NCBI GenBank assembly: GCA_015657575.1
Contig: JACDQN010000441.1
Location: 1-50,909, forward strand
DNA from: Sphingopyxis sp.
GTDB lineage: Bacteria; Pseudomonadota; Alphaproteobacteria; Sphingomonadales; Sphingomonadaceae
DNA length: 50,909 bases
Direction of reading: 5' to 3'
Each line of letters starts with the position of its first letter. The first letter of the stretch is position 1. This document shows positions 2,943 to 46,357 of the stretch, piece by piece. The notes below the pieces were generated by a model. It saw only the letters and a program-made list of their open reading frames with translations, did not search any database and was not told where the DNA came from. Made by a program: the position numbers and the translations under genes.

Positions 2943-3017
2943 GCGGGGTATAGCATAGTGGTAATGCTCTAGCCTTCCAAGCTAGCTAGGCGGGTTCGAT
3001 TCCCGCTACCCGCTCCA
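2943..3017 (+). tRNA. tRNA-Gly(TCC), insertion target of the element
   Basis: Cloverleaf read by eye: D stem GCAT/ATGC, anticodon stem CTAGC/GCTAG around loop CTTCCAA (anticodon TCC), T arm GCGGG-TTCGATT-CCCGC, 3' acceptor strand TACCCGC, then TCCA with an encoded CCA. The 5' acceptor strand reads GCGGGGTA, one G more than the GCGGGTA that would pair perfectly, so the stem would carry a bulged G in the GGGG run 2945-2948. That is either a real variant or an assembly indel. The tRNA 3' half is the likely attB/attL core because the integrase begins about 200 bases downstream. Confidence 0.93.
2991..3017 (+). other. Probable attL core within the tRNA-Gly 3' end
   Basis: Tyrosine integrases of this class usually recombine at the 3' end of a tRNA and restore it. 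Here the T arm and acceptor end of tRNA-Gly directly precede an integrase gene read in the same direction. I found no second copy of the tRNA 3' end in the window, so the other attachment site and the exact core length are not defined. The assignment is inference from position. Confidence 0.55.
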
Positions 3018-3131
3018 AGATTTCATCCGACATCGTCCGACATTGTCTTTGAAAACCGCAGAAAACTGCGGTATATTGCCTTTCTTTTTCCGATGGCATC
3101 CGGCGTTATCCGGTGGCAGCCGAGCATGTCT

Positions 3132-3196
3132 GGGGGCCACTTAGGGGGCCTCGCCATCGGGGACGAATTCGAGTGGCCCCCACCGTGGGGGCCACT
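3132..3196. repeat. Three copies of GGGGGCCACT, two forming a 12-bp-arm palindrome
   Basis: GGGGGCCACT occurs at 3132-3141 on the plus strand, inverted at 3172-3181, and again on the plus strand at 3187-3196. The last two are the inner part of a perfect inverted repeat: AGTGGCCCCCAC at 3172-3183 and its complement at 3185-3196, separated by one base. It sits between the tRNA and the integrase start, where integrase or excisionase arm sites or an integrase operator would be expected. The role is not known; it could also act as an RNA hairpin in the int leader. Confidence 0.7.
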
Positions 3197-3218
3197 TGGT
3201 GGAAAGGCCCATGAAATA

Positions 3219-4463
3219 ATGCCACTTTCTGATGTCGTCATCCGCAACGCTAAGCCGCGCGAGAAGCCCTTCAAGATGGGTGATTCGCTTGGACTGTTTC
3301 TGCTGGTTCAGCCGGGCGGCGGAAAATTGTGGCGACTCAAATATCGTATCAACGGTCGCGAGAAGAAGTTTGCGCTAGGCGTTTATCCGGATGTGAGCTT
3401 GAGCGACGCGCGCCGCCGCCGCGACCAGGCGCGCAGGTTGCTCGCGGATGGCAAAGACCCCTCACTCGAAAAGCAACGCGAAAAGACGCGCTCGCGAATC
3501 GAAGCGAACAATACCTTCGGCGCAATCGCCGAAGAATATTGCCGCAAGCGGCGGCGTGACGGTGAGAAGGCATGGGCAACTTCCACCGCGACGCGAAGCG
3601 AGTACCTGCTTTCGCAGCTCGCCATTTCGATCGGCCGCGTTCCGGTCGCTGAAATCGGACCTGCGGACGTTCTCGCCGCCGTGCGCAAAATCGAGGACAA
3701 GGGAAATCTCGAAAGCGCGCGGCGGACGCTGCAACTTGCCAGCAGCGTGTTTCGTTATGCGGTCGCCACGGTGCGTCTGACCTCTGACCCGACGCGGGAT
3801 TTGCGAGGCGCGCTTATTTCACCGAAGGTGACGCACTATGGCGCGATCACCGAACCCGCTAAAGCCGGCGAACTGCTTGTCGCGATCGACGGCTACGACG
3901 GTCATGGCGTCACCAAGCTCGCATTGCAGATTTCGCCGCATGTCTTTGTTCGTCCTGGCGAATTGCGCCAAGCTCAATGGGGAGAAATCGACCTTGCGTC
4001 CGCATTGTGGACCATCCCCGCGGAAAAGACAAAGATGCGGAAGCCGCACCACGTTCCGCTGTCGGGCCAGGCGGTCGAACTGTTTAGGTTGCTGCAATCG
4101 CTTTCAGGGACGAGCGGCTATGCGTTTCCCTCGATCCGCACCCGGAAGCGCCCGATGTCGGATAACACGCTCAATGCCGCGCTGCGTCGGCTCGGCTATT
4201 CAAGTGATGAAATGACGGGGCATGGCTTCAGGGCGATGGCAAGCACGCTGCTCAATGAATCCGGGTTATGGTCGCCCGATGCAATCGAGCGGGCGCTGGC
4301 CCATGGCGATAGCGACAAGGTTCGCGCGGCCTATCATCGCGGCGCCCACTGGAAAGAACGCTTGAAAATGGCGCAATGGTGGAGCGACTATCTGGACGGT
4401 TTGCGGAAGGAGGCTCAATCCCGAACCCCATCCACTCGGCTTGAGGGCATTCAGTATAGATGA
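3219..4463 (+). CDS. int: P4-type tyrosine recombinase/integrase
   Basis: Site-specific recombinase, 414 residues, that would integrate and excise the element at tRNA-Gly. The N-terminus (MPLSDVVIRNAKPREKPFK, then GLFLLVQPGGGKLWRLKY) is the DUF4102-type arm-binding domain of P4-like integrases. A central SAM-like domain lies around residues 100-190. The C-terminal catalytic domain shows RPGELRQAQW (first Arg), HGFRAMASTLL (H-x-x-R) and HGDSDKVRAAYHRG with the nucleophilic Tyr. I choose ATG 3219 because the family begins here and GGAAAGG lies about 11 bases upstream; an in-frame ATG at 3093 would add 42 atypical residues across the palindrome. Confidence 0.93.
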   Translation: MPLSDVVIRNAKPREKPFKMGDSLGLFLLVQPGGGKLWRLKYRINGREKKFALGVYPDVSLSDARRRRDQARRLLADGKDPSLEKQREKTRSRIEANNTFGAIAEEYCRKRRRDGEKAWATSTATRSEYLLSQLAISIGRVPVAEIGPADVLAAVRKIEDKGNLESARRTLQLASSVFRYAVATVRLTSDPTRDLRGALISPKVTHYGAITEPAKAGELLVAIDGYDGHGVTKLALQISPHVFVRPGELRQAQWGEIDLASALWTIPAEKTKMRKPHHVPLSGQAVELFRLLQSLSGTSGYAFPSIRTRKRPMSDNTLNAALRRLGYSSDEMTGHGFRAMASTLLNESGLWSPDAIERALAHGDSDKVRAAYHRGAHWKERLKMAQWWSDYLDGLRKEAQSRTPSTRLEGIQYR

Positions 4464-5113: not shown

Positions 5114-5144
5114 ACTTCTGAATGGAGGCGCGAAGACGGATGTC

Positions 5145-6678: not shown

Positions 6679-6700
6679 AATAAACTCGGTCTGCGAAAAC

Positions 6701-6724: not shown

Positions 6725-6771
6725 GTCCATGTGAGCCTGAATAATCGGGCCGCTCATATGGGGAGGAATAT

Positions 6772-11217: not shown

Positions 11218-11655
11218 ATGAGCAAGATATTTTTCGCAATGATCGTGGTTGCGGCCGCCGGGGGAGGGACGGCGGTCGCAGCACAGCAGGGGGGCGGTGC
11301 GATCACAGGTCTGTGGTCGACCGGAAGCCAAGGTGGCCGCGTCGAGCTTCATCGGTGCGGCGTTGCCATCTGCGGCAAGGTGGACGACGCCGCTCCCCTG
11401 CGTGCCAATCCCGACCAGCGCGATGTGAAGAACCCTGATCGCAAGTTGCGCGATCGGAGACTGAAAGGGTTGGTGGTGCTGCGCGGGTTCACGGGCGGTC
11501 CTAAAGAATGGGTCGGCGGCCCCGTTTATGACCCTGCTACCGGCGAAGGCGCCGAGAGGGGATATTTGACGCTTCGACCCGATGGCAAACTGGAGGTGAA
11601 GGGTTGCAAGGCGGCAATCTTCTGTCGAACGAAGGTCTGGACCCGCTCGCGCTGA
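11218..11655 (+). CDS. DUF2147 secreted protein
   Basis: A 145-residue protein: signal peptide MSKIFFAMIVVAAAGGGTAVAAQ, then a compact domain starting GLWST and including VELHRCGVAICGKV, PDRKLRDRRLKGLVVLRGF, WVGGPVYDPATGE and GYLTLRPDGKLEVKGC, which are the usual landmarks of DUF2147. Four cysteines are conserved in position. ATG 11218 starts directly at the signal peptide; GTG 11206, which overlaps the upstream stop, is the alternative. The 3' end overlaps the luxR gene by about 52 bases. Function in the family is unknown. Confidence 0.85.
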   Translation: MSKIFFAMIVVAAAGGGTAVAAQQGGGAITGLWSTGSQGGRVELHRCGVAICGKVDDAAPLRANPDQRDVKNPDRKLRDRRLKGLVVLRGFTGGPKEWVGGPVYDPATGEGAERGYLTLRPDGKLEVKGCKAAIFCRTKVWTRSR

Positions 11656-12413
11656 ATTTCGCGGCGGCGTTTCTGACTGAAATCCAGAAGGCCGGCGATC
11701 TTGCCGCCGTGGAAAGCCTGCTCGAAGCCGCGGCGCGGGAGCTGGGTTTTCGCCATTATGCGATGATCCATCATGACGATCACCGCGAACCGCGTCCCGG
11801 CCTCATCAACATGCACAATTATCCCGCTGGCTATGCGGAGGACTATTTCGATGGCATGCGCCACCGCGACGATCCGGTCATCCACGCCTGCGTTGCGGCC
11901 AATGCCTGTTTCACCTGGTGCGACCTGGCCGCCTTCATCACGATCGACGCGCGGCATCGCGACTTCCTCGATCGTGGTGCGCGCTATGGCGTCAGCCACG
12001 GCATCACCGTCCCGGCCTTCGTTCTCGGCGAGCGCAGCGGCTCGTGCAATTTCTGTAGCCCGCGGGCGCCCGATCGCGTGCGGCGCTATGTCGGCACCGT
12101 TCAGATCGTCGGCAGCTTCGCCTTTCAGGCGGCGCGCCGGATCGTGAATGGCGGCAGGCTCCGACAGGTGCGCGCCGCCCGGTTGCAGCCGCGCCAGCGG
12201 GAATGCGTCATCTTGGCCGGGCAGGGCAAGAGCAACACCGACATTGCGGCGATCCTCGGGCTGAGTCCGGCGACGGTCAAATCCTACATCGAGGCAGCCT
12301 GCGCGCGCTATGGCGTCCACAACCGGACCCAGCTCGTGATCGCCGCGGCGCTCGACGGCGAGATCGGCGTCCACGAAGTCGCGCCGAGACAATACCGCCA
12401 CCTGGCGGTCTGA
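11604..12413 (+). CDS. LuxR-family quorum-sensing transcription factor
   Basis: A 269-residue regulator with an N-terminal acyl-homoserine-lactone binding domain and a C-terminal LuxR HTH. In the ligand pocket Tyr81, Asp90 (in RDDPVI) and Trp105 match the conserved Tyr, Asp and Trp of TraR/LuxR, while the first conserved Trp appears as Tyr77. The HTH reads LQPRQRECVILAGQGKSNTD followed by IAAILGLSPATVKSYIEAAC. The start is TTG 11604 with a GGAGG site 7 bases upstream, inside the end of the DUF2147 gene. It lies 56 bases before luxI, so it is the cognate receptor and, by analogy with TraR of symbiosis islands, the top of the excision switch. Confidence 0.92.
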   Translation: MQGGNLLSNEGLDPLALNFAAAFLTEIQKAGDLAAVESLLEAAARELGFRHYAMIHHDDHREPRPGLINMHNYPAGYAEDYFDGMRHRDDPVIHACVAANACFTWCDLAAFITIDARHRDFLDRGARYGVSHGITVPAFVLGERSGSCNFCSPRAPDRVRRYVGTVQIVGSFAFQAARRIVNGGRLRQVRAARLQPRQRECVILAGQGKSNTDIAAILGLSPATVKSYIEAACARYGVHNRTQLVIAAALDGEIGVHEVAPRQYRHLAV

Positions 12414-12469
12414 CTTCCCGCATCTGAATTCGCTCAACTCTTGGCGACACAAGCCAAGGGAGCGATGCC

Positions 12470-13078
12470 GTGATTCATATCATTGAAGGTCTGGGCGAGG
12501 CGGAGCAACAGCCGCTGCTTGACGCCATGTTCGAAGCGCGCAAGCGCCTGTTTGTCAACCTGCTCGACTGGGATCTTGAGACCGTCGATGGCCGTCTCGA
12601 AATCGACCGGTTCGACGACGCTTTTGCGACCTATGTGATTGTCACCGACAATGCCCGACGCCACCTCGCGTCGCTGCGGTTGCTTCCGAGCACGCGGCAG
12701 CACCTGCTCGGTTCGATGTTCGAGCGGCTTTGCCGCGATGGCGTCCCGACGGGGCCAGAAATTTTTGAGATCACCCGCCTGTGCTTGCCGCCGACTGAAC
12801 CCAAGACCGAGCGTCGCCGACTGCGCGACGGGCTCATCCACGCGATGGTAGCGCACGGTCTGGAGCATGGCATTCGCCAGTTCACCGGTGTGGTGACAGC
12901 GCGCTTTCGCGAGCGGATTTTGGCGATGGGCTGGGATGGCGAGGCGCTGGGTCCGGCGATCGACATGGGCGGCGGGCGCCTTGGCGCCTTCCGTGTGACG
13001 ATCGACGAGGCGACCCCGGCGCTGCTTGTGGCGAACGAAATCCTGCCGCTTGCGGATCGGTCGGAGGCGACGTCGTGA
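12470..13078 (+). CDS. LuxI-family acyl-homoserine-lactone synthase
   Basis: Makes the diffusible signal from S-adenosylmethionine and an acyl carrier. The 202-residue protein keeps the family's conserved residues: Arg24 and Phe28 (ARKRLF), Trp34 (LLDWDL), Glu44 and Asp46 with Asp49 (EIDRFDD), Arg70 (SLRLLP), and Glu100 with Arg103 (EITRLCL). The start is GTG 12470 with AAGGGAG 8 bases upstream. It overlaps the dioxygenase gene by 4 bases, so luxI-phyH-fseA is read as one coupled operon. I could not find a convincing lux box in the 56 bases upstream. The acyl chain made cannot be told from sequence. Confidence 0.95.
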   Translation: MIHIIEGLGEAEQQPLLDAMFEARKRLFVNLLDWDLETVDGRLEIDRFDDAFATYVIVTDNARRHLASLRLLPSTRQHLLGSMFERLCRDGVPTGPEIFEITRLCLPPTEPKTERRRLRDGLIHAMVAHGLEHGIRQFTGVVTARFRERILAMGWDGEALGPAIDMGGGRLGAFRVTIDEATPALLVANEILPLADRSEATS

Positions 13079-13963
13079 CCGCGGACTTCGCACCCGACAG
13101 CGCCCCGGTCCGTCTTGACCGCGACGGCTATTGCATCATTCGCGGTCTGGTTGCGCCCAACCGGATCGACGCGATTGACTCCTCGCTCGATTATGATTTC
13201 GCGGCGACACCGTTTTGCGTTGGCGACTTCTTCGGCGAGCGGACGAAGCGTTTCGGGCGGCTGCTCACCCGTGCGCCCGCGACGCGCCAGTTGGTCATGC
13301 ACCCGGCCATTCTCGGTCTCGCCGAAGCTGTCCTCGGTCCCGGCTGCGATCGCATCGCGCTCAATCTGACCCAGGCGATCGAAATCCATCCGGGCGCGCT
13401 CGCCCAATATCCCCACCGCGACCACGACCTCTGGCCGTTCGCCAAGGGCGACCAGCAATTCCAGGTGAATGTCATGTGGCCGCTCACATCATTCACCAAG
13501 GAAAACGGCGCGACACTGCTGTGGTCGGGCAGTCATTTGGGCGACGGTGCGACTGATTTGAGCGAGGCGGCAGCGAGCACCGCGGTCTGCGAGCCGGGCG
13601 ACGCACTGGTGTGGCTCGGGGGGGACGTTGCATGGCGCAGGCGCGAACAATAGCGACGAGCCGCGACGCGGCATTATCGTCAGCTATTGCCTCGGTTGGC
13701 TCAAACCATATGAACTCCAATGGCTCGTCTATCCGCCTGAGGTGGCGCGGCATTTCGATCCGGACTTGGCGGCATTGGTCGGATACGCGCAACACCGCCC
13801 GAATCTCGGCAATGTCGAAGGCCGCTGCCCGTCATTTTTGCTGGCAGGCGACCGGCCTGAGCATGTCGCCGCCGTCGATGCTCTTCGCCCTGATCAGGCC
13901 GATGCTTTGCGCGCCCATGTCGCGGCGCAGCGCGCATCGGAGGCCGACAATGCCGGCGATTAA
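13075..13963 (+). pseudogene. Phytanoyl-CoA dioxygenase (PhyH)-family gene, one-base frameshift in G7 tract
   Basis: Fe(II)/2-oxoglutarate oxygenase, 295 residues if one G is removed. The first frame (13075-13653) carries the iron-binding HxD (His114-Arg115-Asp116 in YPHRDHDLW); the second (to 13963) carries the distal His and 2-oxoglutarate-binding Arg in LHGAGANNSDEPRRG. The break is in a run of seven G (13618-13624); with six, the protein reads smoothly as VWLGGTLHGAGA. As written, both catalytic halves are separated. It starts inside the luxI stop (GTGA overlap) and its end overlaps the fseA-like gene by 14 bases. Its substrate is unknown; modification of the acyl signal or precursor is speculation. 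The indel could be an assembly error, a true mutation, or phase variation. Confidence 0.87.
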
Positions 13964-14183
13964 AACCCGGGCGGTGTTGCCCCGCGGAAGCTGGCGCGAA
14001 CCCGAGATTTACGCCGCCCTAGCGGACGTTGGCGCGCGCGGTCTCGCTTGGGAACTTTTGCGGCGCAATCCTGATTACCCAGGCCGCGGAATCATTGGCG
14101 ATCGTCCTCAGATTGCTGATGCGGCATTTACCGCGCGCTGGGGGCTGCACTTTCGCCGAAACGCCGTGCCGGCCTGCGTCTGA
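13950..14183 (+). CDS. FseA-like activator, first reading frame (DUF6499, Msi172-like)
   Basis: A 77-residue frame starting at ATG 13950 with CGGAGG 8 bases upstream. It shows the DUF6499 signature: GSWREPEIYAALADV, GLAWELLRRNPDY and FTARWGLHF. In ICEMlSymR7A of Mesorhizobium, the equivalent Msi172 frame is joined to Msi171 (DUF2285) by programmed +1 frameshifting to give FseA, which activates rdfS. Here the homology leaves this frame exactly at TTT 14151 and continues one base on. Without the shift, the protein would end with the unrelated tail RRNAVPACV. With the shift the product is 252 residues. It is the last gene of the luxI operon. Confidence 0.85.
   Translation: MPAIKTRAVLPRGSWREPEIYAALADVGARGLAWELLRRNPDYPGRGIIGDRPQIADAAFTARWGLHFRRNAVPACV
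14151..14154 (+). promoter_or_regulatory. Probable +1 programmed frameshift site TTT-C
   Basis: In the zero frame the codons are CAC TTT CGC; skipping C14154 gives CAC TTT GCC GAA, so WGLHF continues as AETPCRPASEARLLWS in the DUF2285 frame. tRNA-Phe with a GAA anticodon can slip from UUU to UUC, which would improve wobble pairing, a common feature of +1 sites. The position is inferred from where family similarity changes frame. Since other genes here carry one-base indels, an assembly error is the main alternative. Confidence 0.65.
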
Positions 14184-14709
14184 AGCTCGGCTGCTGTGGT
14201 CGTTGGCGTTCGACCCATCGGTTCTGCGTGCTTGGCCAATTCGGATGCGGGGTCACGTCGAAAGTGCGCCCCCGATCGAAGATTGTCTGGCTGTCTTGGG
14301 TCGGAAGGAGCTTCACACCGTAATCGGCGGCATTCACCACGGGGTCCGCATCGATATTGCGGAAAGCCGTGCGGCGGTACCAATCGATCGGCTGATTTTT
14401 CCCATCACTATTGCCGATGCGCGAAAGCAGATTGCCGAATTTAAGCGGCTACTGGTTCTCGGGCGGGGCCAAAGCCTGTCGGCCCGCGCACCGACAGCGC
14501 AGTTGCGCCGCATCGTCCTTGGCCTGCGCGTCATCGATGCACTGGGTGAAGGCGCGTCGCTGAAGACGATTGGCGAGGCTTTCATTCGAGCAAACGACTG
14601 GCCTGGTAGCGGAGAATCGACGAAATCGGCCGCGCGCCGGCTCGTGGATTTTGCACGGCGCATGTCAGCAGGTGGGCCTGCGATGATCCTGTCTCGCCAG
14701 CGCCTTTAA
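14155..14709 (+). CDS. FseA-like activator, second reading frame (DUF2285, Msi171-like)
   Basis: C-terminal 184 residues of the frameshifted activator. The frame has no good start of its own near the homology boundary, which supports expression by frameshifting. It contains a DUF2285-like region (PTAQLRRIVLGLRVIDALGE, then GASLKTIGEAFIRANDWPG) and a Lys/Arg-rich end (STKSAARRLVDFARRMSAGG). In the known system this half, fused to the Msi172 half, binds DNA-linked targets and is blocked by QseM. Its stop codon TAA (14707-14709) shares the TTAA palindrome with the stop of the convergent qseC-like gene. Confidence 0.85.
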   Translation, partial: AETPCRPASEARLLWSLAFDPSVLRAWPIRMRGHVESAPPIEDCLAVLGRKELHTVIGGIHHGVRIDIAESRAAVPIDRLIFPITIADARKQIAEFKRLLVLGRGQSLSARAPTAQLRRIVLGLRVIDALGEGASLKTIGEAFIRANDWPGSGESTKSAARRLVDFARRMSAGGPAMILSRQRL

Positions 14710-14942
14710 CTCTCGCGTGCATTTTCGCTGTGTTCGCTTTCTTCGAACAGAGCCTGGGGGCGGATTCCGAGAGCTTCGCTGAGACTCCAAATAGTGAGCA
14801 AGGTGGCATTCTGCTCACCGCGTTCGATCAGTCCGACGTGCGCGCGATCGACCCCCATTCGGGCGCCAACCTCCTCTTGGCTTAGGTTCGCCATTTTGCG
14901 GTAACGGCGTACATTGGCACCGACGAGACGTCTTATGTCCAT
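14706..14942 (-). CDS. Small XRE-family repressor, QseC-like
   Basis: A 78-residue protein that is almost entirely a helix-turn-helix: VRRYRKMANLSQEEVGARMG, then VDRAHVGLIERGEQNATLLT and IWSLSEALGIRPQALFEE. It is divergent from a DUF2285 gene and convergent with the FseA-like gene, the same position as QseC in the Mesorhizobium symbiosis island, where QseC binds the qseC-qseM intergenic region and sets a switch between antiactivator-on and -off states. Two palindromes lie in the 70-base intergenic region. The functional match is inference from family and context. Confidence 0.85.
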   Translation of the reverse strand: MDIRRLVGANVRRYRKMANLSQEEVGARMGVDRAHVGLIERGEQNATLLTIWSLSEALGIRPQALFEESEHSENARES

Positions 14943-14964
14943 CCAAATCTTAGAGGACAGACGA

Positions 14965-14991
14965 GCATTTTGATGCTACGTATTATAATAC
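14965..14991. promoter_or_regulatory. Operator-like palindromes and -10 element between qseC-like and qseM-like genes
   Basis: AGCAT-TTTG-ATGCT (14965-14978) is a short inverted repeat, and GTATTATAATAC (14980-14991) is a perfect 12-bp palindrome. The second overlaps TATAAT (14984-14989), a consensus -10 for the plus-strand gene at 15013. A repressor bound here would block that promoter; because the palindrome is symmetric it could also serve the minus-strand gene. This A+T-rich patch stands out in G+C-rich surroundings. Confidence 0.68.
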
Positions 14992-15012
14992 TCTATGCTC
15001 AGGTTTTCGTTG

Positions 15013-15276
15013 ATGGATATTTCGTTTTTAGATCGGTGTCGAAGCGGTGTCGTCGAGCTGGCACCGAGTGAATCCGTCGTGACAGAGTATGACCATGCTC
15101 ACATGCTGACCTATGCACGGCTTCTCGACGCCGAACGAGATGGCCATAAGTGGTCCGTCGTCGCGGTGGAGGTGCTCGATCTCAACGTCTCTGTGGATGG
15201 CGAAGGCGCACGGCGCTGTTGGCAGTCGCACCTCGAACGCGCCCACTGGTTGGTGCGCGAGGGCTTCGCCACTTAG
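15013..15276 (+). CDS. DUF2285 protein, QseM-like antiactivator
   Basis: An 87-residue protein made of a single DUF2285 domain: YDHAHMLTYARLLDAERDGH, WSVVAVEVLDLNV, and the family's closing motif RRCWQSHLERAHWLVREGF. In ICEMlSymR7A, QseM is a small DUF2285 protein that binds and blocks both TraR and FseA; the domain shared with the FseA-like second frame fits that mechanism. I choose ATG 15013 (AGG 9 bases upstream, about 25 bases after the TATAAT box); ATG 14995 would sit at the transcription start. It is divergent from the qseC-like gene. Confidence 0.83.
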   Translation: MDISFLDRCRSGVVELAPSESVVTEYDHAHMLTYARLLDAERDGHKWSVVAVEVLDLNVSVDGEGARRCWQSHLERAHWLVREGFAT

Positions 15277-15452
15277 CTTATCGCCATAGGCAAATTGATG
15301 CGGGCTCATGGGGGTCGCGGGCCGCGGTCGCGATCGAGCCTTCGTGTTGGGGTGTCGGAATCGCACATCCTTGTGTTCGACACGTCCGCGACCTTGAGAT
15401 GTTCTCCATGCGCTGAATGACGCCTGCGCGGCGTCCATCGGCGGGAGGCGGC
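15277..15452 (+). other. Intergenic region before the excisionase operon
   Basis: About 175 bases with no convincing gene. By analogy the promoter activated by the FseA-like protein should be here, but I see no motif that I can name. Confidence 0.4.
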
Positions 15453-15683
15453 ATGGAAGAAGACGGCAGCATCGAACGGGCGATCGAGGCCAAACGCGGG
15501 TCGCCCTTTCTGAACCCGAAGCAGGCTGCCCATTATCTCGGCGTCTCGCTCCGCACCTTGCAGGAGCATCGCACCAAGGGGACGGGACCGCGATACCGGC
15601 GTCCTTGCCGGCGTATTCGCTATCATATCGACGATTTAGATACATGGTCGATTGCTGAGGCCGAGGGCACGGCGGATGATTGA
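15453..15683 (+). CDS. AlpA/MerR-like HTH excisionase, RdfS-like
   Basis: A 76-residue winged-HTH protein of the AlpA/excisionase type: FLNPKQAAHYLGVSLRTLQE, HRTKGTGPRYRR and RRIRYHIDDLDTW. Such recombination directionality factors bend attachment-site DNA so the integrase excises the element. The start ATG 15453 has GGGAGG 6 bases upstream. Its stop overlaps the traF start (ATGATTGA), so the two are coupled, the same rdfS-traF arrangement as in the Mesorhizobium symbiosis island. It is 11 kb from the integrase it would act with. Confidence 0.85.
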   Translation: MEEDGSIERAIEAKRGSPFLNPKQAAHYLGVSLRTLQEHRTKGTGPRYRRPCRRIRYHIDDLDTWSIAEAEGTADD

Positions 15684-16206
15684 AGCCGCGGCTCGCAATG
15701 ATCGGCTGGTCGGTCGCTGGGCGATCGGCTGCGCCGGTCTGATGCTCGCGCTGGGGGCGACAGTGGTGATGCCGCCGCGACCCCGGCTCGTCTGGAATCC
15801 GAGCGCCAGTGCGCCGATCGGACTTTATGCGCTCAGTGACGCTGGCAGTCTGGCGCGCGGCGACATGGTGGTCGCGCGCCTGCCCGGCGAGTTTCGGATG
15901 TTTGCCGCGCGGCGCCATTATCTTCCCGCCAATGTTCCGCTTGTGAAGCGCGTTGCCGGGGTTCCCGGCGACAAGGTGTGCGCTGTCGGTGCGCGCATCT
16001 TCGTCAACGGGCAGTTGGTCGCTTCACGTCTTTCTCGTGACGGGACGGGGAGGGTGATGCCCCGGTGGGCGGGCTGCGTGTCGCTGGCTGAGGGGCGCTA
16101 TTTTCTGCTGATGGCGGAGAGCGGCGCATCTTTCGATGGGCGCTATTTCGGGGTCAGCGAGGCGAGCGACATCGTCGGCAAGGCGCGACTGCTGTGGCGG
16201 GCTTGA
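15676..16206 (+). CDS. traF: TraF-type S26 signal peptidase, conjugative transfer
   Basis: A 176-residue membrane peptidase that matures pilin in Trb/Tra-type conjugation systems. An N-terminal transmembrane segment (GCAGLMLALGATVVM) precedes the catalytic Ser motif SASAPIGLYAL and the catalytic Lys motif VKRVAGVPGDKVC, the standard S26 pair. The C-terminal FDGRYFGV box resembles the leader-peptidase GDNRxxS region. The likely substrate is the TrbC-like pilin encoded at 45989. It overlaps rdfS upstream and the transglycosylase downstream. Confidence 0.92.
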   Translation: MIEAAARNDRLVGRWAIGCAGLMLALGATVVMPPRPRLVWNPSASAPIGLYALSDAGSLARGDMVVARLPGEFRMFAARRHYLPANVPLVKRVAGVPGDKVCAVGARIFVNGQLVASRLSRDGTGRVMPRWAGCVSLAEGRYFLLMAESGASFDGRYFGVSEASDIVGKARLLWRA

Positions 16207-16763
16207 GGCTCGCGCTCGCCGCGCTGGCGCTGGTCGCCGCAGCGCCCGCCAAGGCTGAGTCGGTCGATCGCTGGCAGCCCTATATTGCCGAGGCGTCGGC
16301 GCGCTATGCAGTTCCGGTCGAATGGATCGAGCGCGTGATGCGCGCCGAGAGCGGCGGGCGGACGACGCTCGACGGCCGCCCGATCACCAGCCACGCCGGT
16401 GCGATGGGGCTGATGCAGCTCATGCCGGGGACATGGGCCGACATGCGCACCCGGCTCGGATTGGGGCGCGATCCGCACGATCCGCGCGACAATATTCTCG
16501 CCGGCGCCTATTATCTGCGACTGATGCACGACCGCTTCGGTTATCCCGGTCTCTTCGGCGCCTACAATGCCGGGCCGGGACGCTATGCGGCCTGGCTCGC
16601 GGGGCGCTCGGCGCTTCCCGGCGAAACGCGCGCCTATATCGCTACGGTGGCCGGCCGCGATCGGGCGCGTGCCGTTGGCGTGCAATCCCGTCCGGTGACG
16701 GCCCCGCCGGACGACGGCGGTGTGCGGGAGACCGGCGCGCAGATTTTTTTCATCCGGCGCTAG
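16194..16763 (+). CDS. Lytic transglycosylase (VirB1-like)
   Basis: A 189-residue secreted SLT-domain enzyme that opens peptidoglycan for the transfer apparatus. It has a signal peptide (to about AKAES), the catalytic Glu in RVMRAESGGRTT, then GAMGLMQLMPGTWADM, DPRDNILAGAYYLRLM and GLFGAYNAGPGRY, all SLT family hallmarks. The GTG start overlaps traF by 13 bases. The short C-terminal tail after residue 160 is Pro-rich and unconserved. Confidence 0.93.
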   Translation: MAGLRLALAALALVAAAPAKAESVDRWQPYIAEASARYAVPVEWIERVMRAESGGRTTLDGRPITSHAGAMGLMQLMPGTWADMRTRLGLGRDPHDPRDNILAGAYYLRLMHDRFGYPGLFGAYNAGPGRYAAWLAGRSALPGETRAYIATVAGRDRARAVGVQSRPVTAPPDDGGVRETGAQIFFIRR

Positions 16764-28688: not shown

Positions 28689-30674
28689 ATGCCCAGCAAC
28701 GACGACTTTGAACCGCGGCTTGGTCGCTTGGGCGACAAGGGCCGCAAGCCGCGCCCACGCAAATTTATCTCGCGCGTCATCGCCGCCACCAATCTTGCGC
28801 GCGGTGGCGCGTCGGGCCGGGGTCGCCAATCGGCGTTCACCGGCAGCCGGATCGGGCGCGGTGCGGGCGTAGGCCGCGTCCTTTCGTCGCGCGACCGCTA
28901 CGCCGCTTTCCGTCAACGCCGCGTCATCGTGAAAATCCGCACCGTCAAACTCGGCGGCAAGGGCCTCGATGCCGCCAAGGCGCATCTGCGCTACGTCGAG
29001 CGCGACGGCACGACGCGCGGTGGCGGGCGCGGGCAGCTCTATGGGGCTGACGCCGACAAGGTGGACCGGAACACTTGGCTCAAACAGGGGAGCGACGATC
29101 GCCACCAATTCCGCGTCATCGTCAGCCCCGAGGACGGGCTGGAATATGACGATCTCAAATCGCTGACGCGTCGGTTGATGGAGCGTGCCGAGGAGGATCT
29201 CGGGACGCGGCTCGACTGGGTCGCGGTCGATCATTTCAATACCGGGCACCCGCACAGCCATATCATCGTCCGCGGCAAGGACGAACGCGGCAAGGATTTG
29301 ATCATCGCGCGCGACTATATCGTGCATGGCTTTCGCGAGCGCGCGTGCGAGCTGGTCGATCTCGATCTGGGCCCGAAAACCGATCGGGCGATCGAGCAGC
29401 GGCTGCGTGCCGAAGTCGAGCAGGAGCGTTTCACGAGCATCGACCGCGCCCTGCTTCGCGAAAGGGGCGACGATATTCTTGTCAGCACGAAGGCGCGCGG
29501 TGCGTTCGATCAAACGATACGGATGGGGCGGCTGCGCAGGCTCGAGCGGCTCGGGCTGGCCTCACAGCTTGGTGCGGCGCATTGGAAACTTGCGCCCAAC
29601 CTCGAGTCGGTGCTCCGAAAAATGGGCGAACGCGGCGATATCATCCGCACGATGCAGCGTGCCTATTCCGAGCGTGGCGTGGCGCTCGCGGTGGCCGACC
29701 AAGCGATCTACGATCCGTCTGTGCCCGGGACGGCATCGCTGGTCGGCCGGATCGTCGAGCGCGGCCTGTCCGACGAACATGCCGACCGGCACTATCTGAT
29801 CGTCGAGGCGACCGATGGGCGGTCGCATTATGTCGAGACGGGAAAAGGCGAAAGGCTTCCGTCGTGTCCGCCGGGCGCGATCGTTCGAATCGTTTCTGTC
29901 GAGCCCACCGTGCGCGATGCCGACCGAACGGTCTCCGATGTCGCCGCTGCAAATGGCGGGCGCTACACGGTCGATGCGCATCTTCGGTTCGACCCGAGCG
30001 CCTCGCAGGAGTTTGCCGAGGCGCATGTCCGGCGGCTCGAAGCGATGCGCCGAATGAGCGGCGGTACGCAGCGCGAGCCCGACGGCACCTGGCATATAGC
30101 ATCCAATCATCTCGAACGCGCCGCTGCGTATGAGGTCGCGCGCGCACGCGATCAGCCCGTCACCGTCGAGATATTATCGCCCGAACCAATTGAGCGGATT
30201 GTCGAGGCGCGAGCCGCGACTTGGCTCGATCGAGAACTCGTCGCCGATACGCAGCTTCCGCTTCGCGCAGCTGGCTTCGGCAAGGAAACCAGTGGGGCGC
30301 TGGCTATTCGCCGACAGTGGCTCCTCGACGAGGGCTTCGCAGTACGTCAGGGCGAGCGGGTCATTGTACGAAGTCGCGCGCTCGATGAGCTCTGCCAGCT
30401 TGAGATACGGAGCATGGCTGACGTGCTGGCGCGAGAGATCGGCAAGCCCTTGGCCGAGCCTCGGCATGGCGAGCGGATCGAGGGGCGCTTGGGTCGTCCG
30501 GTCGACCTTCTGAGCGGTCGCCACGCGCTCGTCGAGCGTTCACGAGATTTCGTGCTTGTTCCCTGGCGCCCAGCGCTGGAGCGTCAAGTCGGCAAACCCG
30601 TGGCCGGAATCATGCGCGATCAAGGCGTCAGCTGGCAGATCGGCCGCCGGCGCAGCGGGCCGTCGGTGTCGTGA
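28689..30674 (+). CDS. VirD2/TraI-type relaxase with DUF3363 domain
   Basis: A 661-residue conjugative relaxase that would nick at oriT and lead the strand into the recipient. An Arg/Gly-rich N-terminus (residues 1-75) precedes the nuclease domain: HLRYVERDG near residue 100 with Tyr102 as a possible nucleophile, FRVIVSPEDGLEYDDL, and the metal-binding motif DHFNTGHPHSHIIVRG (Asp181-His182, His187, His189, His191). The C-terminal half is the DUF3363-type region (SVEPTVRDADRTVSDVA, WLDRELV, PLRAAGFGKE). ATG 28689 follows TAAGG by 8 bases; longer in-frame starts run into the oriT-like gap. Confidence 0.9.
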   Translation: MPSNDDFEPRLGRLGDKGRKPRPRKFISRVIAATNLARGGASGRGRQSAFTGSRIGRGAGVGRVLSSRDRYAAFRQRRVIVKIRTVKLGGKGLDAAKAHLRYVERDGTTRGGGRGQLYGADADKVDRNTWLKQGSDDRHQFRVIVSPEDGLEYDDLKSLTRRLMERAEEDLGTRLDWVAVDHFNTGHPHSHIIVRGKDERGKDLIIARDYIVHGFRERACELVDLDLGPKTDRAIEQRLRAEVEQERFTSIDRALLRERGDDILVSTKARGAFDQTIRMGRLRRLERLGLASQLGAAHWKLAPNLESVLRKMGERGDIIRTMQRAYSERGVALAVADQAIYDPSVPGTASLVGRIVERGLSDEHADRHYLIVEATDGRSHYVETGKGERLPSCPPGAIVRIVSVEPTVRDADRTVSDVAAANGGRYTVDAHLRFDPSASQEFAEAHVRRLEAMRRMSGGTQREPDGTWHIASNHLERAAAYEVARARDQPVTVEILSPEPIERIVEARAATWLDRELVADTQLPLRAAGFGKETSGALAIRRQWLLDEGFAVRQGERVIVRSRALDELCQLEIRSMADVLAREIGKPLAEPRHGERIEGRLGRPVDLLSGRHALVERSRDFVLVPWRPALERQVGKPVAGIMRDQGVSWQIGRRRSGPSVS

Positions 30675-42193: not shown

Positions 42194-42547
42194 AATGTCA
42201 ATATGGCGCTATTTCGCCGTCGGATGGGGTCAGGGAAAATCCAAGTTGGGGCGTCAAGCTGCAGCTGTCCTGCACCAGCGAGCGACCGAGTTCGGGCAAC
42301 GAGAAATTATGGCGCGAACGACCGACATGAGGCGCATTGCAGTCCGGCTGCTAACTGCCGGCGACTCGGGGCGAACTCAGGTGCATGCTCAGATCAAAAT
42401 GTCGGACGTCCCGACCTGAACTGATACGCAAAACGCGCCGCCTGCGCCAATATGCGTCGTCGCGCGTCATAACCGTCATATGTGATTTCTCCCTTCCGGC
42501 TGAGCTTGCGGCTTCGAGGCGATCCTGTGCCTCGCCGGGAGAATCTC
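42194..42547 (+). other. Intergenic region before traG
   Basis: About 350 bases without a convincing gene; short open frames here have no family features. It separates the divergent 311-residue gene from the conjugation operon and should hold the traG-trb promoter, but I see no clear element. Confidence 0.45.
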
Positions 42548-44563
42548 TTGACCCCCACGAAGCTCCTTGTCGGACAGATCTTCGTCGTTTTCGCGATCGT
42601 CATCGCGGGCGTGTGGGCCGCGACGCAATGGTGCGCCGCGCAGCTTGGCTATCAAGCGCAGCTCGGGCCGGCCTGGTTCATGGCTGCCGACACGCCAGTC
42701 TATCGGCCGTGGTCGATCTTCCCGTGGTGGTATCATTTCGAGGCCTATGCGCCGGACATTTTCGACAAGGCGGGGATGCTGGCCGGGGCGAGCGGATTTC
42801 TGGGTTGCGCGGCTGCCATTGCCGGGTCGCTGTGGCGCGCGCGGCAATCGCGCCACGTCACGACTTATGGTTCGGCGCGCTGGGCGATCGACCGCGAGAT
42901 CGAACGCGCCGGCCTGACAGGCGAGGCGGGTGTGTTTATCGGCCGCAAGCGCGGTCGCTATCTGCGCCACGACGGCCCCGAGCATGTCATGGCCTTTGCG
43001 CCGACCCGCAGCGGGAAGGGCGTCGGACTGGTCGTTCCGACGCTGCTGAGTTGGACCGGCTCGGCAGTCATCCACGACATCAAAGGCGAGAACTGGCAGC
43101 TGACCGCGGGCTGGCGCGCGCGCTTCGGTCACGCGCTGCTGTTCAATCCCACCGATCCCGGGTCCGCCAAATATAACCCGCTGCTCGAGGTTCGGCGCGG
43201 CGAGCATGAGGTTCGCGACGTTCAGAATATCGCCGACATACTGGTCGATCCCGAAGGCGCGCTCGAGCGGCGCAATCACTGGGAGAAAACGTCGCATTCG
43301 CTGTTGGTCGGCGCGATCCTCCACATTCTCTATGCCGAGCAGGACAAGACGCTCGCGCGCGTCGCGACCTTCCTGTCCGATCCCCAGCGTTCGTTTGTCA
43401 CCACGCTCCGCCGGATGATGACGACCAATCATATCGGCACCAAGGAAGCGCCGCAGGTCCATCCCGTAGTCGCGTCGGCGGCGCGCGAAGTGCTCAACAA
43501 GTCGGAGAATGAACGCAGCGGCGTTCTCTCGACCGCGATGTCGTTTCTTGGTCTCTATCGCGATCCGACCGTCGCCACGGTGACGTCGCGGTGCGACTGG
43601 CGCATTGCCGATCTTGTCGAGGGCGAGCACCCCGTCTCGCTCTATCTCGTCATCCCGCCGTCGGACATTGCGCGGACCAAGCCGCTCGTGCGCCTCGTAC
43701 TCAATCAGATCGGGCGGCGGTTGACCGAGAAGCTCGACGCCGATCGCTCCGACGGCCGCAAGCACCAGCTCTTGATGATGCTCGACGAGTTTCCGGCGCT
43801 CGGGCGGCTCGATTTCTTCGAGACGAGCCTGGCTTTCATGGCGGGCTACGGCGTGCGCGCCTTCCTGATCGCGCAAAGCCTCAACCAGATCGAAAAGGCT
43901 TACGGCGAGCATAACAGCATCCTCGATAACTGCCACGTCCGGGTTGCCTTCGCGACGAACGATGAGCGGACGGCGCGGCGGATTTCGGACGCGCTCGGGG
44001 TCGCGACCGAACAGCGCGCGATGCGCAACTATGCCGGCCACCGCCTCGCGCCCTGGCTCGCGCACGTCATGGTCAGCCGGCAAGAGACCGCGCGCCCGCT
44101 GCTGACGCAGGGCGAGGTGATGCAGCTTCCCCCCGCCGACGAGCTCGTTCTCGTATCGGGCATGGCGCCGATCCGCGCCCAGAAGCTGCGCTATTATGAA
44201 GACGCCAACTTCCGCGCGCGCCTCGCGCCGCCCCCCGTGGTTTCGGGCGGCGACTATGCCGACCGCCCGACGCCGCGCGCCGATGACTGGAGCGGGATGG
44301 TTTGCGCGCCCGACGAGCGTCTTGGTGAGGGCGATGACGGGGCGGCGGACGATGACGGCGGTCTCCAGCAGCAGCGCCATCCGACGCTCGACGACCATGC
44401 GGTGAAGACCGAACCGGCGAAGCAGCTCGAACTCCCCGATCTCGAACGCGATGATCCCGACGCCGCGGCCGACAAGCGCGTCATGGACCGCGTTCGCGCG
44501 TCGCTGGTGCGCGGTCACGCGCTCAACCAGTCGCAATCCCAAGACCTGTTGCCGGGGCTGTAG
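42548..44563 (+). CDS. traG: TraG/VirD4-type coupling protein
   Basis: A 671-residue inner-membrane ATPase that delivers the relaxase-DNA complex to the secretion channel. Two transmembrane segments lie in the N-terminal 110 residues (IFVVFAIVIAGVWAATQW and ASGFLGCAAAIAGSLWRA). Walker A is FAPTRSGKGVGLVVPTLL, Walker B LLMMLDEFPALGRLDFFE, with VIHDIKGENWQLTAG and a conserved ERSGVLSTAMSFLGLYRD region. I place the start at TTG 42548 (GGGAGAA 7 bases upstream, family-like N-terminus); GTG 42482 would add 22 unusual residues. The acidic C-terminal tail is typical. Confidence 0.93.
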   Translation: MTPTKLLVGQIFVVFAIVIAGVWAATQWCAAQLGYQAQLGPAWFMAADTPVYRPWSIFPWWYHFEAYAPDIFDKAGMLAGASGFLGCAAAIAGSLWRARQSRHVTTYGSARWAIDREIERAGLTGEAGVFIGRKRGRYLRHDGPEHVMAFAPTRSGKGVGLVVPTLLSWTGSAVIHDIKGENWQLTAGWRARFGHALLFNPTDPGSAKYNPLLEVRRGEHEVRDVQNIADILVDPEGALERRNHWEKTSHSLLVGAILHILYAEQDKTLARVATFLSDPQRSFVTTLRRMMTTNHIGTKEAPQVHPVVASAAREVLNKSENERSGVLSTAMSFLGLYRDPTVATVTSRCDWRIADLVEGEHPVSLYLVIPPSDIARTKPLVRLVLNQIGRRLTEKLDADRSDGRKHQLLMMLDEFPALGRLDFFETSLAFMAGYGVRAFLIAQSLNQIEKAYGEHNSILDNCHVRVAFATNDERTARRISDALGVATEQRAMRNYAGHRLAPWLAHVMVSRQETARPLLTQGEVMQLPPADELVLVSGMAPIRAQKLRYYEDANFRARLAPPPVVSGGDYADRPTPRADDWSGMVCAPDERLGEGDDGAADDDGGLQQQRHPTLDDHAVKTEPAKQLELPDLERDDPDAAADKRVMDRVRASLVRGHALNQSQSQDLLPGL

Positions 44564-44971: not shown

Positions 44972-45987
44972 GCGACGCGCTTCATTCTGCCAATCTGTCC
45001 TCCGGGCGCCGCCGGGCGATGCTGCGCACCGCGATGGGGCCGGGCATCGCCGCGGCTCTGTCCGATCCCGCGGTCATCGAGATCATGGTGAACCCCGACG
45101 GAGTGTTGCGGCTCGACCGGCTGGGCGAGGGCCGCATCGACACCGGCACGCGCTACGATCCGGCGCAGGTCGAACGCATCATCCGGCTGGTCGCGAGCCA
45201 CGCGCGCACCGAGGTGCATGCCGCAGCGCCGATCATTTCTGCCGAGCTGCCGCCGCATGGCGAGGGGGCAGGGGAGCGGTTCGAGGGCGTGCTCCCGCCG
45301 GTCAGCCTCGCGCCCTGCTTCTCGATCCGCAAGCCCGCCGCGCGCATCTACACGCTGCTCGACTATGTGAAGGACGGGATCATGCCCGCCGACACGGCGC
45401 GGCTGCTGTCGATGGCGGTGGTCGAGCGGCGGAGTATTCTCGTCGCGGGCGGCACCTCGTCGGGCAAGACGACGCTCGCCAACGCGTTGCTCGCCGAAAT
45501 GGCCGGTCTCGACGAGCGGGTGATCATCATCGAGGACACGCGCGAACTGCAATGCGCGGCAAGCGATGTCGTCGCGCTGCGGACACGCGCGGTTGGCGCG
45601 ACGGGCGCGGGCGCGGTGACGATGGCCGATCTCGTGCGCTCGACGCTTCGCCTCCGCCCCGATCGCATCATCGTCGGCGAAGTGCGCGGCCGCGAGGCGC
45701 TCGACATGCTCAAGGCCTGGAATACCGGCCACCCCGGCGGCATCGCGACCGTCCATGCGAACAGCGCGAGCGCGGCACTCTACCGTCTCGAACAGCTGGT
45801 GCAGGAAAGCGTCGTCACCGTGCCGCGCCGGCTGATCGCCGAAGCGATCGACATGATCGTCTTCATCGCCGGACGCGGCCTTGCGCGCCGCGTCGAGACC
45901 ATCGCGCGCGTCGCCGGTCTCGACGCGCAGGGCGATTACGCCGTCCGCGACCTCAGCCCCGATCCCAGCGCTCTTGAAGGAGAATGA
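44968..45987 (+). CDS. trbB: TrbB, VirB11-type secretion ATPase
   Basis: A 339-residue hexameric ATPase that powers pilus assembly and transfer. Walker A is VAGGTSSGKTTLANALL near residue 163, followed by IIIEDTRELQC (Asp box), RSTLRLRPDRIIVGEVRG and TGHPGGIATVHANSA (His box), all VirB11 family motifs. It starts in a 4-base overlap with the RHH gene. Length and order match trb clusters. Confidence 0.95.
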   Translation: MSDALHSANLSSGRRRAMLRTAMGPGIAAALSDPAVIEIMVNPDGVLRLDRLGEGRIDTGTRYDPAQVERIIRLVASHARTEVHAAAPIISAELPPHGEGAGERFEGVLPPVSLAPCFSIRKPAARIYTLLDYVKDGIMPADTARLLSMAVVERRSILVAGGTSSGKTTLANALLAEMAGLDERVIIIEDTRELQCAASDVVALRTRAVGATGAGAVTMADLVRSTLRLRPDRIIVGEVRGREALDMLKAWNTGHPGGIATVHANSASAALYRLEQLVQESVVTVPRRLIAEAIDMIVFIAGRGLARRVETIARVAGLDAQGDYAVRDLSPDPSALEGE

Positions 45988-45988
45988 C

Positions 45989-46357
45989 ATGCATGTTCGC
46001 GCCCTCGCACCGAAGATGGCCAAGGCAAGCGCCCGCGCCCCCGCATTACGGCGGCTGGCCGTCGTCGGCATCAACCTCGGCCTCGTGCTCGGTCTGGCCG
46101 GTGCCGCCCATGCCGCCGGCTCGGGCATGCCGTGGGAAGAACCTCTCCAGCAGCTCTTGGAATCGGTCCAGGGCCCGGTCGCGAAGATCGTCGCGGTGAT
46201 CATCATCATCGTCACCGGGCTGACGCTGGCGTTCGGCGAAACCGCGGGCGGGTTCCGGCGGCTCATCCAAATCATCTTCGGCCTGTCGATCGCCTTTGCC
46301 GCGTCGAGCTTTTTCTTGTCCTTCTTCTCCTTCGGCGGCGGGGCGCTCATCGCATGA
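45989..46357 (+). CDS. trbC: TrbC, VirB2-like pilin precursor
   Basis: A 122-residue prepilin. A long leader (residues 1-45, with GINLGLVLGLAGAAHAAG) is followed by the two hydrophobic segments of VirB2-like pilins: VAKIVAVIIIIVTGLTLAF and LIQIIFGLSIAFAASSFFL. TraF at 15676 is the likely maturation peptidase. The start ATG 45989 follows GAAGGAGA. The stop overlaps trbD (ATGA). Confidence 0.93.
   Translation: MHVRALAPKMAKASARAPALRRLAVVGINLGLVLGLAGAAHAAGSGMPWEEPLQQLLESVQGPVAKIVAVIIIIVTGLTLAFGETAGGFRRLIQIIFGLSIAFAASSFFLSFFSFGGGALIA

What the first reader, a model, noticed from the sequence alone, without database searches (positions are those of the whole stretch)
11604..16206. Quorum-sensing excision switch like that of the Mesorhizobium symbiosis island, in a sphingomonad-type element
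luxR, luxI, a DUF6499/DUF2285 two-frame activator, a small XRE repressor divergent from a small DUF2285 protein, an AlpA-like excisionase and traF occur together in one 4.6-kb block. This is the TraR-TraI-FseA-QseC-QseM-RdfS-TraF set of ICEMlSymR7A, and explains how transfer could be triggered by cell density. Gene families and order are read from the sequence; function is by analogy.
Basis: partly seen in the sequence, partly recalled or inferred. Interest (0 to 1): 0.9.

Follow-up and report, generated by a model that had tools for sequence, protein, structure and literature searches.

The report
Quorum-sensing excision switch with phyH
A mobile DNA element in a Sphingopyxis-like bacterium carries a chemical-signal switch for leaving the chromosome that closely resembles one known from a nitrogen-fixing soil bacterium, with an extra enzyme gene and a folded RNA that may keep the signal-making gene silent until it is needed.

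Summary
The block is real: luxR, luxI, two-frame fseA with a +1 site, qseC/qseM, rdfS and traF at 11604-16206, inside an integrative element at tRNA-Gly. QseM and RdfS match the solved Mesorhizobium proteins; an FseA-box candidate precedes rdfS; FseA and QseM charges are opposite, as in that system.

phyH follows 67 of 87 luxI features in the family survey; luxI-phyH-fseA on one strand occurs in 12 of these (window included) and in 31 of 80 loci of a second, biased scan. LuxI is far below the TraI models' cut-offs; whether LuxR is a TraR orthologue is unsettled.

Unexpectedly, a hairpin covers the luxI ribosome site. It is well above controls, its arms co-vary, it occurs in other alphaproteobacteria, and it is stronger with luxR directly upstream. 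A dyad resembling a lux box lies 68.5 nt upstream. I propose that luxI is translated mainly from RNA started inside the hairpin; this is inference, and one general test did not support it.

Verdict: new variant of a known switch.

The parts
2943..3017 (+). tRNA-Gly(TCC), insertion site of the element
   Evidence: a same-genus contig with the same sequence just after the tRNA aligns to window 2186-10063 at 86%
3126..4463 (+). tyrosine integrase (IntS role)
   Evidence: three integrase domains
11604..12413 (+). luxR
12394..12409 (.). candidate lux box ACCGCCACCTGGCGGT at the end of luxR, centre -68.5 from the luxI start
   Evidence: strong dyads are commonest at -60 to -70, in 17 of 91 loci
12430..12465 (+). 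RNA hairpin holding the luxI ribosome-binding site in its 3' arm
12470..13078 (+). luxI
   Evidence: its stop overlaps the phyH start (GTGA)
13075..13653 (+). phyH, N-terminal part of an Fe(II)/2-oxoglutarate dioxygenase gene
   Evidence: PF05721 1.4e-20; 78% identical to the L217 (Sphingopyxis granuli) copy
13618..13624 (+). 7-G run where the phyH frame breaks
13628..13963 (+). phyH C-terminal part, in another frame
13950..14183 (+). fseA first ORF (DUF6499)
14139..14157 (+). +1 frameshift site TGGGGGCTGCACTTTCGCC
   Evidence: 81 of 101 family loci with both domains have the +1 relation
14152..14709 (+). fseA second frame (DUF2285, net positive)
14706..14942 (-). qseC-like repressor
14980..14991 (.). 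candidate QseC operator GTATTATAATAC
   Evidence: the same block is kept in L217
14995..15276 (+). qseM-like antiactivator (net negative); a second ATG at 15013 is also possible
15354..15381 (.). candidate FseA box GTCGGA-16-TTCGAC
15453..15683 (+). rdfS (ORF opens at 15417; ATG 15453 preferred from the 8dgl alignment and a Shine-Dalgarno-like sequence)
15676..16206 (+). traF
16194..16763 (+). transglycosylase (role of msi107)
   Evidence: PMC8627217 passage
28689..30674 (+). relaxase with DUF3363 (RlxS role)
42527..44563 (+). traG coupling protein
45019..50907 (+). trb mating-pair genes up to trbL, cut by the contig end

Best explanation
This is the excision and transfer switch of an integrative conjugative element, built on the FseA/QseM logic of ICEMlSymR7A but driven by a sphingomonad luxR-luxI-phyH cassette. 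Proposed steps. (1) LuxR with acyl-homoserine lactone binds a box at the end of luxR and starts luxI-phyH-fseA transcription (inferred from a positioned dyad). (2) A hairpin hides the luxI ribosome site on transcripts that read through from luxR; transcripts from the LuxR-driven promoter start inside the hairpin and lack most of its 5' arm, so LuxI is translated; the tight luxI/phyH/fseA junctions would pass that control on (hairpin shown by statistics, filter and coupling inferred). (3) A +1 ribosomal frameshift makes full FseA (site shown, event inferred). (4) FseA binds its box and switches on rdfS-traF (candidate box shown). (5) RdfS and the integrase excise the element at tRNA-Gly, and TraF, relaxase and Trb proteins transfer it (by homology). 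(6) QseM, repressed by QseC, blocks FseA and perhaps LuxR in most cells (homology and charge pattern shown). PhyH most likely tailors or removes the signal or a related acyl compound (inference only; it may be broken here).
For: Homology to solved R7A QseM and RdfS. +1 relation of the two fseA frames in 81 of 101 family loci that have both, nearly all with the TGGGG...TTTC site that the window has. FseA-box model on 70 deduplicated rdfS leaders: score 61-69 against 16-17 for one shuffle each, window site 11.4; part of the 70 leaders have no good site. Charge: DUF2285 of FseA mean +6.6 (173 hits), QseM -5.6 (117 hits); window +7 and -5. Candidate 4-nt luxI-phyH overlap in 12 of 12 same-strand family loci, candidate fseA starts -11 to +30 nt from the phyH stop. 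Gene order. Hairpin: mean z -2.30 in 56 luxI-phyH loci against -0.24 for 150 generic genes, -2.46 in 42 further loci, 39 of them with phyH, own-arm pairing z -15.4 in 95 loci against -3.1 in 100 generic genes, stronger with luxR directly upstream (111 loci, -2.39) than without (34, -1.15; p 0.0008). Predicted start inside the hairpin in 28 of 33 loci that could be judged. Window ribosome site paired 0.98-0.99 from 20 to 50 C, and 0.38-0.42 if the RNA starts at 12442 or later.
Against: No functional data. No attR found: the exact tRNA 3' end occurs once in the draft genome, and the element is cut by the contig end. Release of the ribosome site by 5' truncation was not clearly commoner for luxI (14 of 49 loci drop by more than 0.4; 7 of 56 were dropped for lack of a recognisable site) than for generic genes (38 of 200). 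Genes other than luxR directly upstream do not go with a hairpin (10 loci, mean z -0.48), so it is not a shield against read-through in general. Sphingomonad luxI without phyH show little (18 loci, -0.75). RNAalifold on a plain alignment of 31 loci found no pairs. Dyads scoring 7 or more: 19 of 56 near -68 against 11 of 56 in a three times wider control stretch; at 6.5 or more, 26 against 31. The start-site offset of 42.5 nt is recalled from other LuxR promoters. The window phyH, and apparently trbE, are broken in frame, so this copy or its assembly may be defective. 78 of 104 family fseA features have no luxI within 2.6 kb, so FseA control need not be quorum-driven.
Confidence: 0.72

Rival explanations
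1. The FseA/QseM/RdfS core works, but the lux cassette is a passenger: luxR-luxI-phyH is a mobile sphingomonad signalling cassette that happens to sit beside fseA and does not control it.
For: Only 26 of 87 luxI features of the family survey have fseA within 2.6 kb, and the cassette stands in three arrangements relative to fseA: 12 same strand, 10 divergent, 3 with fseA upstream.
Against: Candidate 4-nt luxI-phyH overlaps and close fseA starts in 12 of 12 same-strand loci; 31 of 80 loci of the second scan are same-strand too (that scan was seeded half with such loci and at least four are the same loci). In 21 of those 80 the cassette lies beside rdfS without fseA.
Confidence: 0.15
2. The luxI hairpin is not a transcript-origin filter but serves another translational control: an RNA thermometer, or a small RNA or RNase E target, as reported or proposed for lasI, rhlI and sinI.
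For: Passages read: lasI has a ROSE-like thermometer (PMC13104619); the rhlI ribosome site is predicted to be occluded and the sRNA RhlS may open it (PMC6786874); the sinI leader is a target of RNase E and of the sRNA RcsR1 (PMC5977203, PMC7143759). The general truncation test did not favour the filter.
Against: Predicted pairing of the site hardly changes between 20 and 42 C in 94 loci (0.84 to 0.83) or to 50 C in the window. The hairpin is weaker where luxR is not directly upstream. Arm sequences differ widely between loci, which speaks against one shared small RNA.
Confidence: 0.4
3. The hairpin is a DNA dyad, a second LuxR or repressor operator over the luxI start.
For: Fold energies of the two strands do not differ clearly (sense lower in 54% of 56 loci, mean difference -0.74 kcal).
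Against: Arm sequences vary between loci while pairing is kept, the stem ends within 0 to 10 nt of the start codon in the 55 of 56 loci with a predicted one, and 56 of 648 predicted pairs are G-U.
Confidence: 0.12
4. Decayed remnant: the switch in this copy no longer works because phyH, trbE and other genes are broken.
For: Frame break in phyH (7-G run, the longest G run of the window), split GajA-like and PD-Lambda-4-like genes, and overlapping gene calls for trbE (its second piece was not searched).
Against: The regulatory genes tested, the frameshift site, the candidate boxes and the hairpin are there; the draft has 561 contigs and is 78% complete, so assembly errors are possible.
Confidence: 0.15

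Closest known systems
ICEMlSymR7A TraR-FseA-QseM-RdfS switch of Mesorhizobium (PMC10359603: abstract, FseA-box section, discussion and further passages read; PMC11963761 and PMC8627217: passages read)
   Same: Two-frame fseA with +1 site, DUF6499 + DUF2285, negative QseM beside QseC, FseA box before rdfS, rdfS-traF-transglycosylase order, relaxase, Trb system, integrase at a tRNA gene
   Different: phyH between luxI and fseA; LuxI of another subfamily; a hairpin over the luxI ribosome site (not tested in R7A); candidate boxes compared by layout, not by sequence
Sphingomonad luxR-luxI-phyH cassettes, novR-novI-phyH and 'topology T' with virB genes (PMC3704786, PMC5012321, PMC4288048: passages read)
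   Same: Gene order luxR-luxI-phyH; those authors noted nearby virB genes or a likely quorum-regulated phyH operon
   Different: In the passages read, fseA, qseM, rdfS or excision are not mentioned; here the cassette runs into fseA in an integrative element
FseA/QseM homologues across proteobacteria (PMC10359603: 4709 FseA homologues, about 61% with the +1 site)
   Same: This FseA fits that widespread family
   Different: The parts read do not describe a phyH-containing quorum operon; 'sphingo', 'phyH' and 'alphaproteobacteria' as such do not occur in its main text
Occluded ribosome sites of autoinducer synthase genes: lasI thermometer, rhlI leader (PMC13104619, PMC6786874: passages read)
   Same: A stem covers all or part of the ribosome site of a luxI-type gene
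   Different: The stem here is stable over 20-50 C in the model, is found across alphaproteobacterial luxI, and goes with luxR directly upstream

Membership tests
FseA/QseM-controlled ICE (ICEMlSymR7A type) | DUF6499 and DUF2285 encoded in two frames joined by a +1 site | tested here: met
   PF20109 3.1e-14, PF10074 1.2e-7, +1 relation, TGGGGGCTGCACTTTCGCC
FseA/QseM-controlled ICE (ICEMlSymR7A type) | QseM: lone DUF2285 protein with negative charge | tested here: met
   7uqt 5.1e-9; net charge -5; PF10074 only 0.026
FseA/QseM-controlled ICE (ICEMlSymR7A type) | QseC-type repressor divergent from qseM with an operator between | tested here: inconclusive
   Divergent HTH_3 gene present (1.4e-13); candidate palindrome GTATTATAATAC kept in L217; no comparison with R7A QseC, binding not tested
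FseA/QseM-controlled ICE (ICEMlSymR7A type) | RdfS directly before traF, FseA box before rdfS | tested here: met
   8dgl 5.8e-20; rdfS and traF overlap (15676-15683); candidate box 15354-15381
FseA/QseM-controlled ICE (ICEMlSymR7A type) | TraR/TraI orthologues as input | tested here: inconclusive
   LuxR: engineered RhlR 2.6e-16, TraR 3e-9, wild-type RhlR 8.6e-5; LuxI 58 bits against TraI cut-off 292; no tree built
FseA/QseM-controlled ICE (ICEMlSymR7A type) | Integrase, relaxase, Trb genes and att repeats | tested here: inconclusive
   Integrase, DUF3363 relaxase, TraG, trb genes found; attR not found, contig ends in trbL
FseA/QseM-controlled ICE (ICEMlSymR7A type) | Excision raised by quorum signal and FseA, blocked by QseM | not testable with these tools
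   needs cells
Sphingomonad luxR-luxI-phyH cassette | phyH directly downstream of luxI, same strand | tested here: met
   GTGA overlap 13075-13078; PF05721
Sphingomonad luxR-luxI-phyH cassette | Active-site residues of PhyH (H and D of HxD, distal H, R) | tested here: inconclusive
   HRD present in the window N-part; distal H and R lie beyond the frame break; residue roles recalled
RNA thermometer (ROSE-like) | Opening of the ribosome site with temperature | tested here: not met
   model only: 0.99 at 20 C, 0.98 at 50 C; only the tRNA reached an Rfam gathering score in the window

The most novel reading that the evidence does not exclude
Tandem luxR-luxI loci across the Alphaproteobacteria carry a transcript-origin filter: a hairpin over the luxI ribosome site silences RNA that reads through from luxR, while RNA started at the LuxR-bound box begins inside the hairpin and is translated. 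In sphingomonad elements this filter, passed on through the overlapping luxI-phyH-fseA genes, sets a sharp threshold for excision, and PhyH edits the signal.
Probability: 0.28. Interest if true: 0.78.

Novelty: new variant of a known kind. Interest (0 to 1): 0.6.

Why it matters
It suggests a role for many of the long-noted sphingomonad luxR-luxI-phyH cassettes, whose targets are unclear in the papers read: moving conjugative elements. It also points to a hairpin at luxI genes of many alphaproteobacteria that could keep autoinducer synthesis off until true activation, which can be tested with simple reporter fusions.

Tried and rejected
A single lux-box sequence for all loci: rejected. The palindrome CATCCCCagtactGGGGATG scored above 8 in 26 of 56 loci, but not in the window or in any of the other same-strand family loci, which have other dyads at or near the same place.

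Covariation by RNAalifold on a MAFFT alignment of 31 loci: no pairs found; the alignment does not line up the arms. Arm-exchange and arm-permutation tests were used instead.

Programmed frameshift in phyH: rejected. 63 of 66 phyH features with a C-terminal part in range are in one frame; the window is one exception and the other two (L045, L191) break elsewhere in the gene.

RNA thermometer: not supported by the model. Release of the ribosome site in truncated RNA as a general property: not supported (14 of 49 against 38 of 200).

Hairpin as special to phyH loci: rejected after 30 luxI of other alphaproteobacterial families (one with a PhyH hit) gave mean z -2.06.

LuxR nearer to RhlR than to TraR: withdrawn on checking, because the best hits are engineered RhlR variants.

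attR by exact tRNA 3' end: not found. Paper searches: ten used; Ramsay 2015 and Ramsay 2022 are not held, so their content is known only as cited in other papers. No structure prediction, covariance model or tree was run.
Full report
What is there. The window is the left part of an integrative conjugative element at tRNA-Gly (2943-3017): integrase 3126-4463, a sigma/FecR/TonB-receptor set (5172-10155), the finding's block, ArdC, ParB and DUF736 proteins, a DUF3363 relaxase, TraG and trb genes to the contig end. A same-genus contig shares window 2186-10063 at 86%. The host is Sphingopyxis-like: window 1711-3017 matches the genomes of S. panaciterrulae and S. granuli at 84 and 82% over nearly all its length, and six other Sphingomonadales genomes, apart from tRNA pieces, only in part at 71-77%.

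The block. The small DUF2285 protein matches the solved QseM of R7A (7uqt, 5.1e-9) and the AlpA-like protein the solved RdfS (8dgl, 5.8e-20). The two fseA frames stand in +1 relation with the site TGGGGGCTGCACTTTCGCC at 14139-14157. Of 104 DUF6499 features in the family survey, 101 had a DUF2285 partner in range; 81 stand in +1 and 20 in the same frame. Jowsey and colleagues report about 61% with the +1 site and note the UGGGGG at the WGL codons (PMC10359603). Net charge separates FseA DUF2285 (mean +6.6, 173 hits) from QseM (-5.6, 117 hits) over both locus sets, as they describe. With the published spacing of the FseA box (inverted hexamers 15-16 bp apart), a palindromic model on 70 deduplicated rdfS leaders (of 123) scores 61-69 against 16-17 for one shuffle each; the window site is GTCGGA-16-TTCGAC at 15354-15381; part of the leaders have no good site. 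A 12-bp palindrome between qseC and qseM is kept in L217 inside a longer identical block, while other loci have other palindromes there.

The input half. LuxI is far below the cut-offs of the TraI models (58 of 292, 50 of 250 bits). For LuxR the picture is open: engineered RhlR variants score best, then TraR (3e-9), with wild-type RhlR at 8.6e-5.

The missed gene. phyH lies between luxI and fseA. In 12 of 12 same-strand family loci there is a phyH start overlapping the luxI stop by 4 nt, and a candidate fseA start -11 to +30 nt from the phyH stop. Relatives of known structure are Fe(II)/2-oxoglutarate dioxygenases such as AusE and PrhA (1.3e-22 to 6e-21, queried with the L217 copy). In the window its frame breaks at a 7-G run; 63 of 66 phyH features with a C-terminal part in range are in one frame. 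The contig has other split genes (GajA-like, PD-Lambda-4-like, apparently trbE), so assembly error is a real possibility.

Distribution. 199 genomes of the family were searched: 62 held DUF6499 and 62 a luxI-type gene. The 104 and 86 matches were fetched in 159 loci besides the window and annotated with profiles seeded from the window. Of 87 luxI features (one broken gene, in L191, counts twice), 67 have phyH downstream (both L191 pieces among them) and 26 have fseA within 2.6 kb: 12 same strand (window included), 10 divergent, 3 with fseA upstream, 1 without phyH. Of 104 fseA features, 26 have luxI within 2.6 kb, 72 qseM within 3 kb, 75 rdfS within 8 kb. So most fseA loci had no luxI close by; quorum control is one input among others. 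A scan of named genomes with a LuxI alignment, 12 of its 24 sequences from same-strand loci and so biased to them, kept the best 80 of 330 relatives: 73 have phyH, 31 same-strand luxI-phyH-fseA, 13 divergent, 7 fseA without phyH, and 21 have phyH next to rdfS with no fseA. L214-L217 (Sphingopyxis) and L227 (Variovorax) hold the whole set. In 289 genomes drawn over the class, DUF6499 occurs in 17; of the 21 loci from that search, only the window's own showed luxI or phyH, but these loci are short. In plasmids, 70 records hold a PhyH match, 36 of them predicted conjugative; whether luxI lies beside them was not checked. Earlier papers noted luxR-luxI-phyH and nearby virB genes (PMC3704786, PMC4288048, PMC5012321, passages).

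The hairpin. Directly before luxI a hairpin takes in the ribosome site: window 12430-12465. For 56 deduplicated luxI-phyH loci (of 67) the 40 nt before the start fold at mean z -2.30 (64% below -1.5), against -0.24 (11%) for 150 generic genes, -0.59 to +0.16 for eight other genes of the block, and -0.75 for 18 luxI without phyH. Replication: 42 further loci, 39 with phyH, -2.46. Own arms fit better than exchanged arms: 95 luxI-phyH loci, -17.5 against -13.3 kcal, z -15.4; 21 without phyH, z -4.1; 100 generic genes, z -3.1. It is not confined to sphingomonads: 30 luxI of other alphaproteobacterial families give mean z -2.06 and arm z -8.8. It is stronger with luxR directly upstream (111 loci, -2.39) than without (34 loci, -1.15; p 0.0008), but weak where another gene lies directly upstream (10 loci, -0.48). 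L215 has an unbroken 15-bp stem at this place. Against: RNAalifold found no pairs on a plain alignment of 31 loci; the strands do not differ clearly.

The box. A palindrome CATCCCCagtactGGGGATG starts 72 to 91 nt before luxI in 26 of 56 loci (model score 171 against 38 for one shuffle). Same-strand loci have other dyads at or near that place, several ACCCGAGTAATCACTCGGTC-like over the luxR stop; the window has ACCGCCACCTGGCGGT at 12394-12409. Strong dyads peak at -60 to -70: 17 of 91 sphingomonad loci with luxR upstream, other 10-nt bins 7 or fewer; 5 of 20 in other alphaproteobacteria. By a simpler count, 19 of 56 against 11 of 56 in a wider control stretch; at a lower threshold the excess vanishes (26 against 31). 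If transcription starts 42.5 nt after the box centre, a value recalled from other LuxR promoters, the start falls inside the hairpin in 28 of 33 loci that could be judged. In the window the ribosome site is then paired about 0.4 instead of 0.98. Over all loci, however, the drop is not clearly commoner than in generic genes (14 of 49 against 38 of 200).

Reading. In the sequence features tested and settled, the core switch belongs to the FseA/QseM kind; the input is a phyH-bearing quorum cassette. Precedents for occluded luxI-type ribosome sites exist in Pseudomonas (PMC6786874, PMC13104619) and leader control of sinI in Sinorhizobium (PMC5977203, PMC7143759), all read as passages. Searches for luxI with hairpin, stem-loop, thermometer or readthrough terms (listings, and no sphingomonad term) showed no title on such a filter; this covers only the held library. 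Density-controlled excision, the filter, the frameshift event and the PhyH reaction are all untested here.

Noticed in passing
window 37528-40851: Gabija-like defence pair (GajA-like gene in two pieces, then GajB-like) inside the element.
   Followed up: partly
window 18671-22454, minus strand: PD-Lambda-4_A-like candidate defence gene, split into two overlapping frames.
   Followed up: partly
window 46635-49129: trbE-like ATPase gene apparently split into two overlapping frames; the second piece was not searched.
   Followed up: no
L252, L254-L259, L261-L272, L291, L140, L187, L188: A second, highly conserved sphingomonad set, luxR-luxI-phyH-rdfS-traF without fseA and (except L270, where it was not seen) with an XRE gene upstream; quorum sensing may act on rdfS directly.
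   Followed up: partly
L128, L129: phyH-luxR divergent from fseA with luxI not detected between them: phyH kept without luxI.
   Followed up: no
family loci: rdfS and traF lie close together in the window and in the lux-bearing loci where both were seen, but 1.5 kb or more apart in many luxless ones; Mesorhizobium symbiosis elements likewise lack genes between the two that other elements have (PMC8627217, passage).
   Followed up: no
L294-L323: Hairpins over the luxI ribosome site in other alphaproteobacterial families.
   Followed up: partly
L227 and plasmid hits H1-H5: A Variovorax contig (L227) holds the whole switch; Variovorax and Hydrogenophaga plasmids hold PhyH matches at 55% identity whose surroundings were not inspected.
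   Followed up: partly
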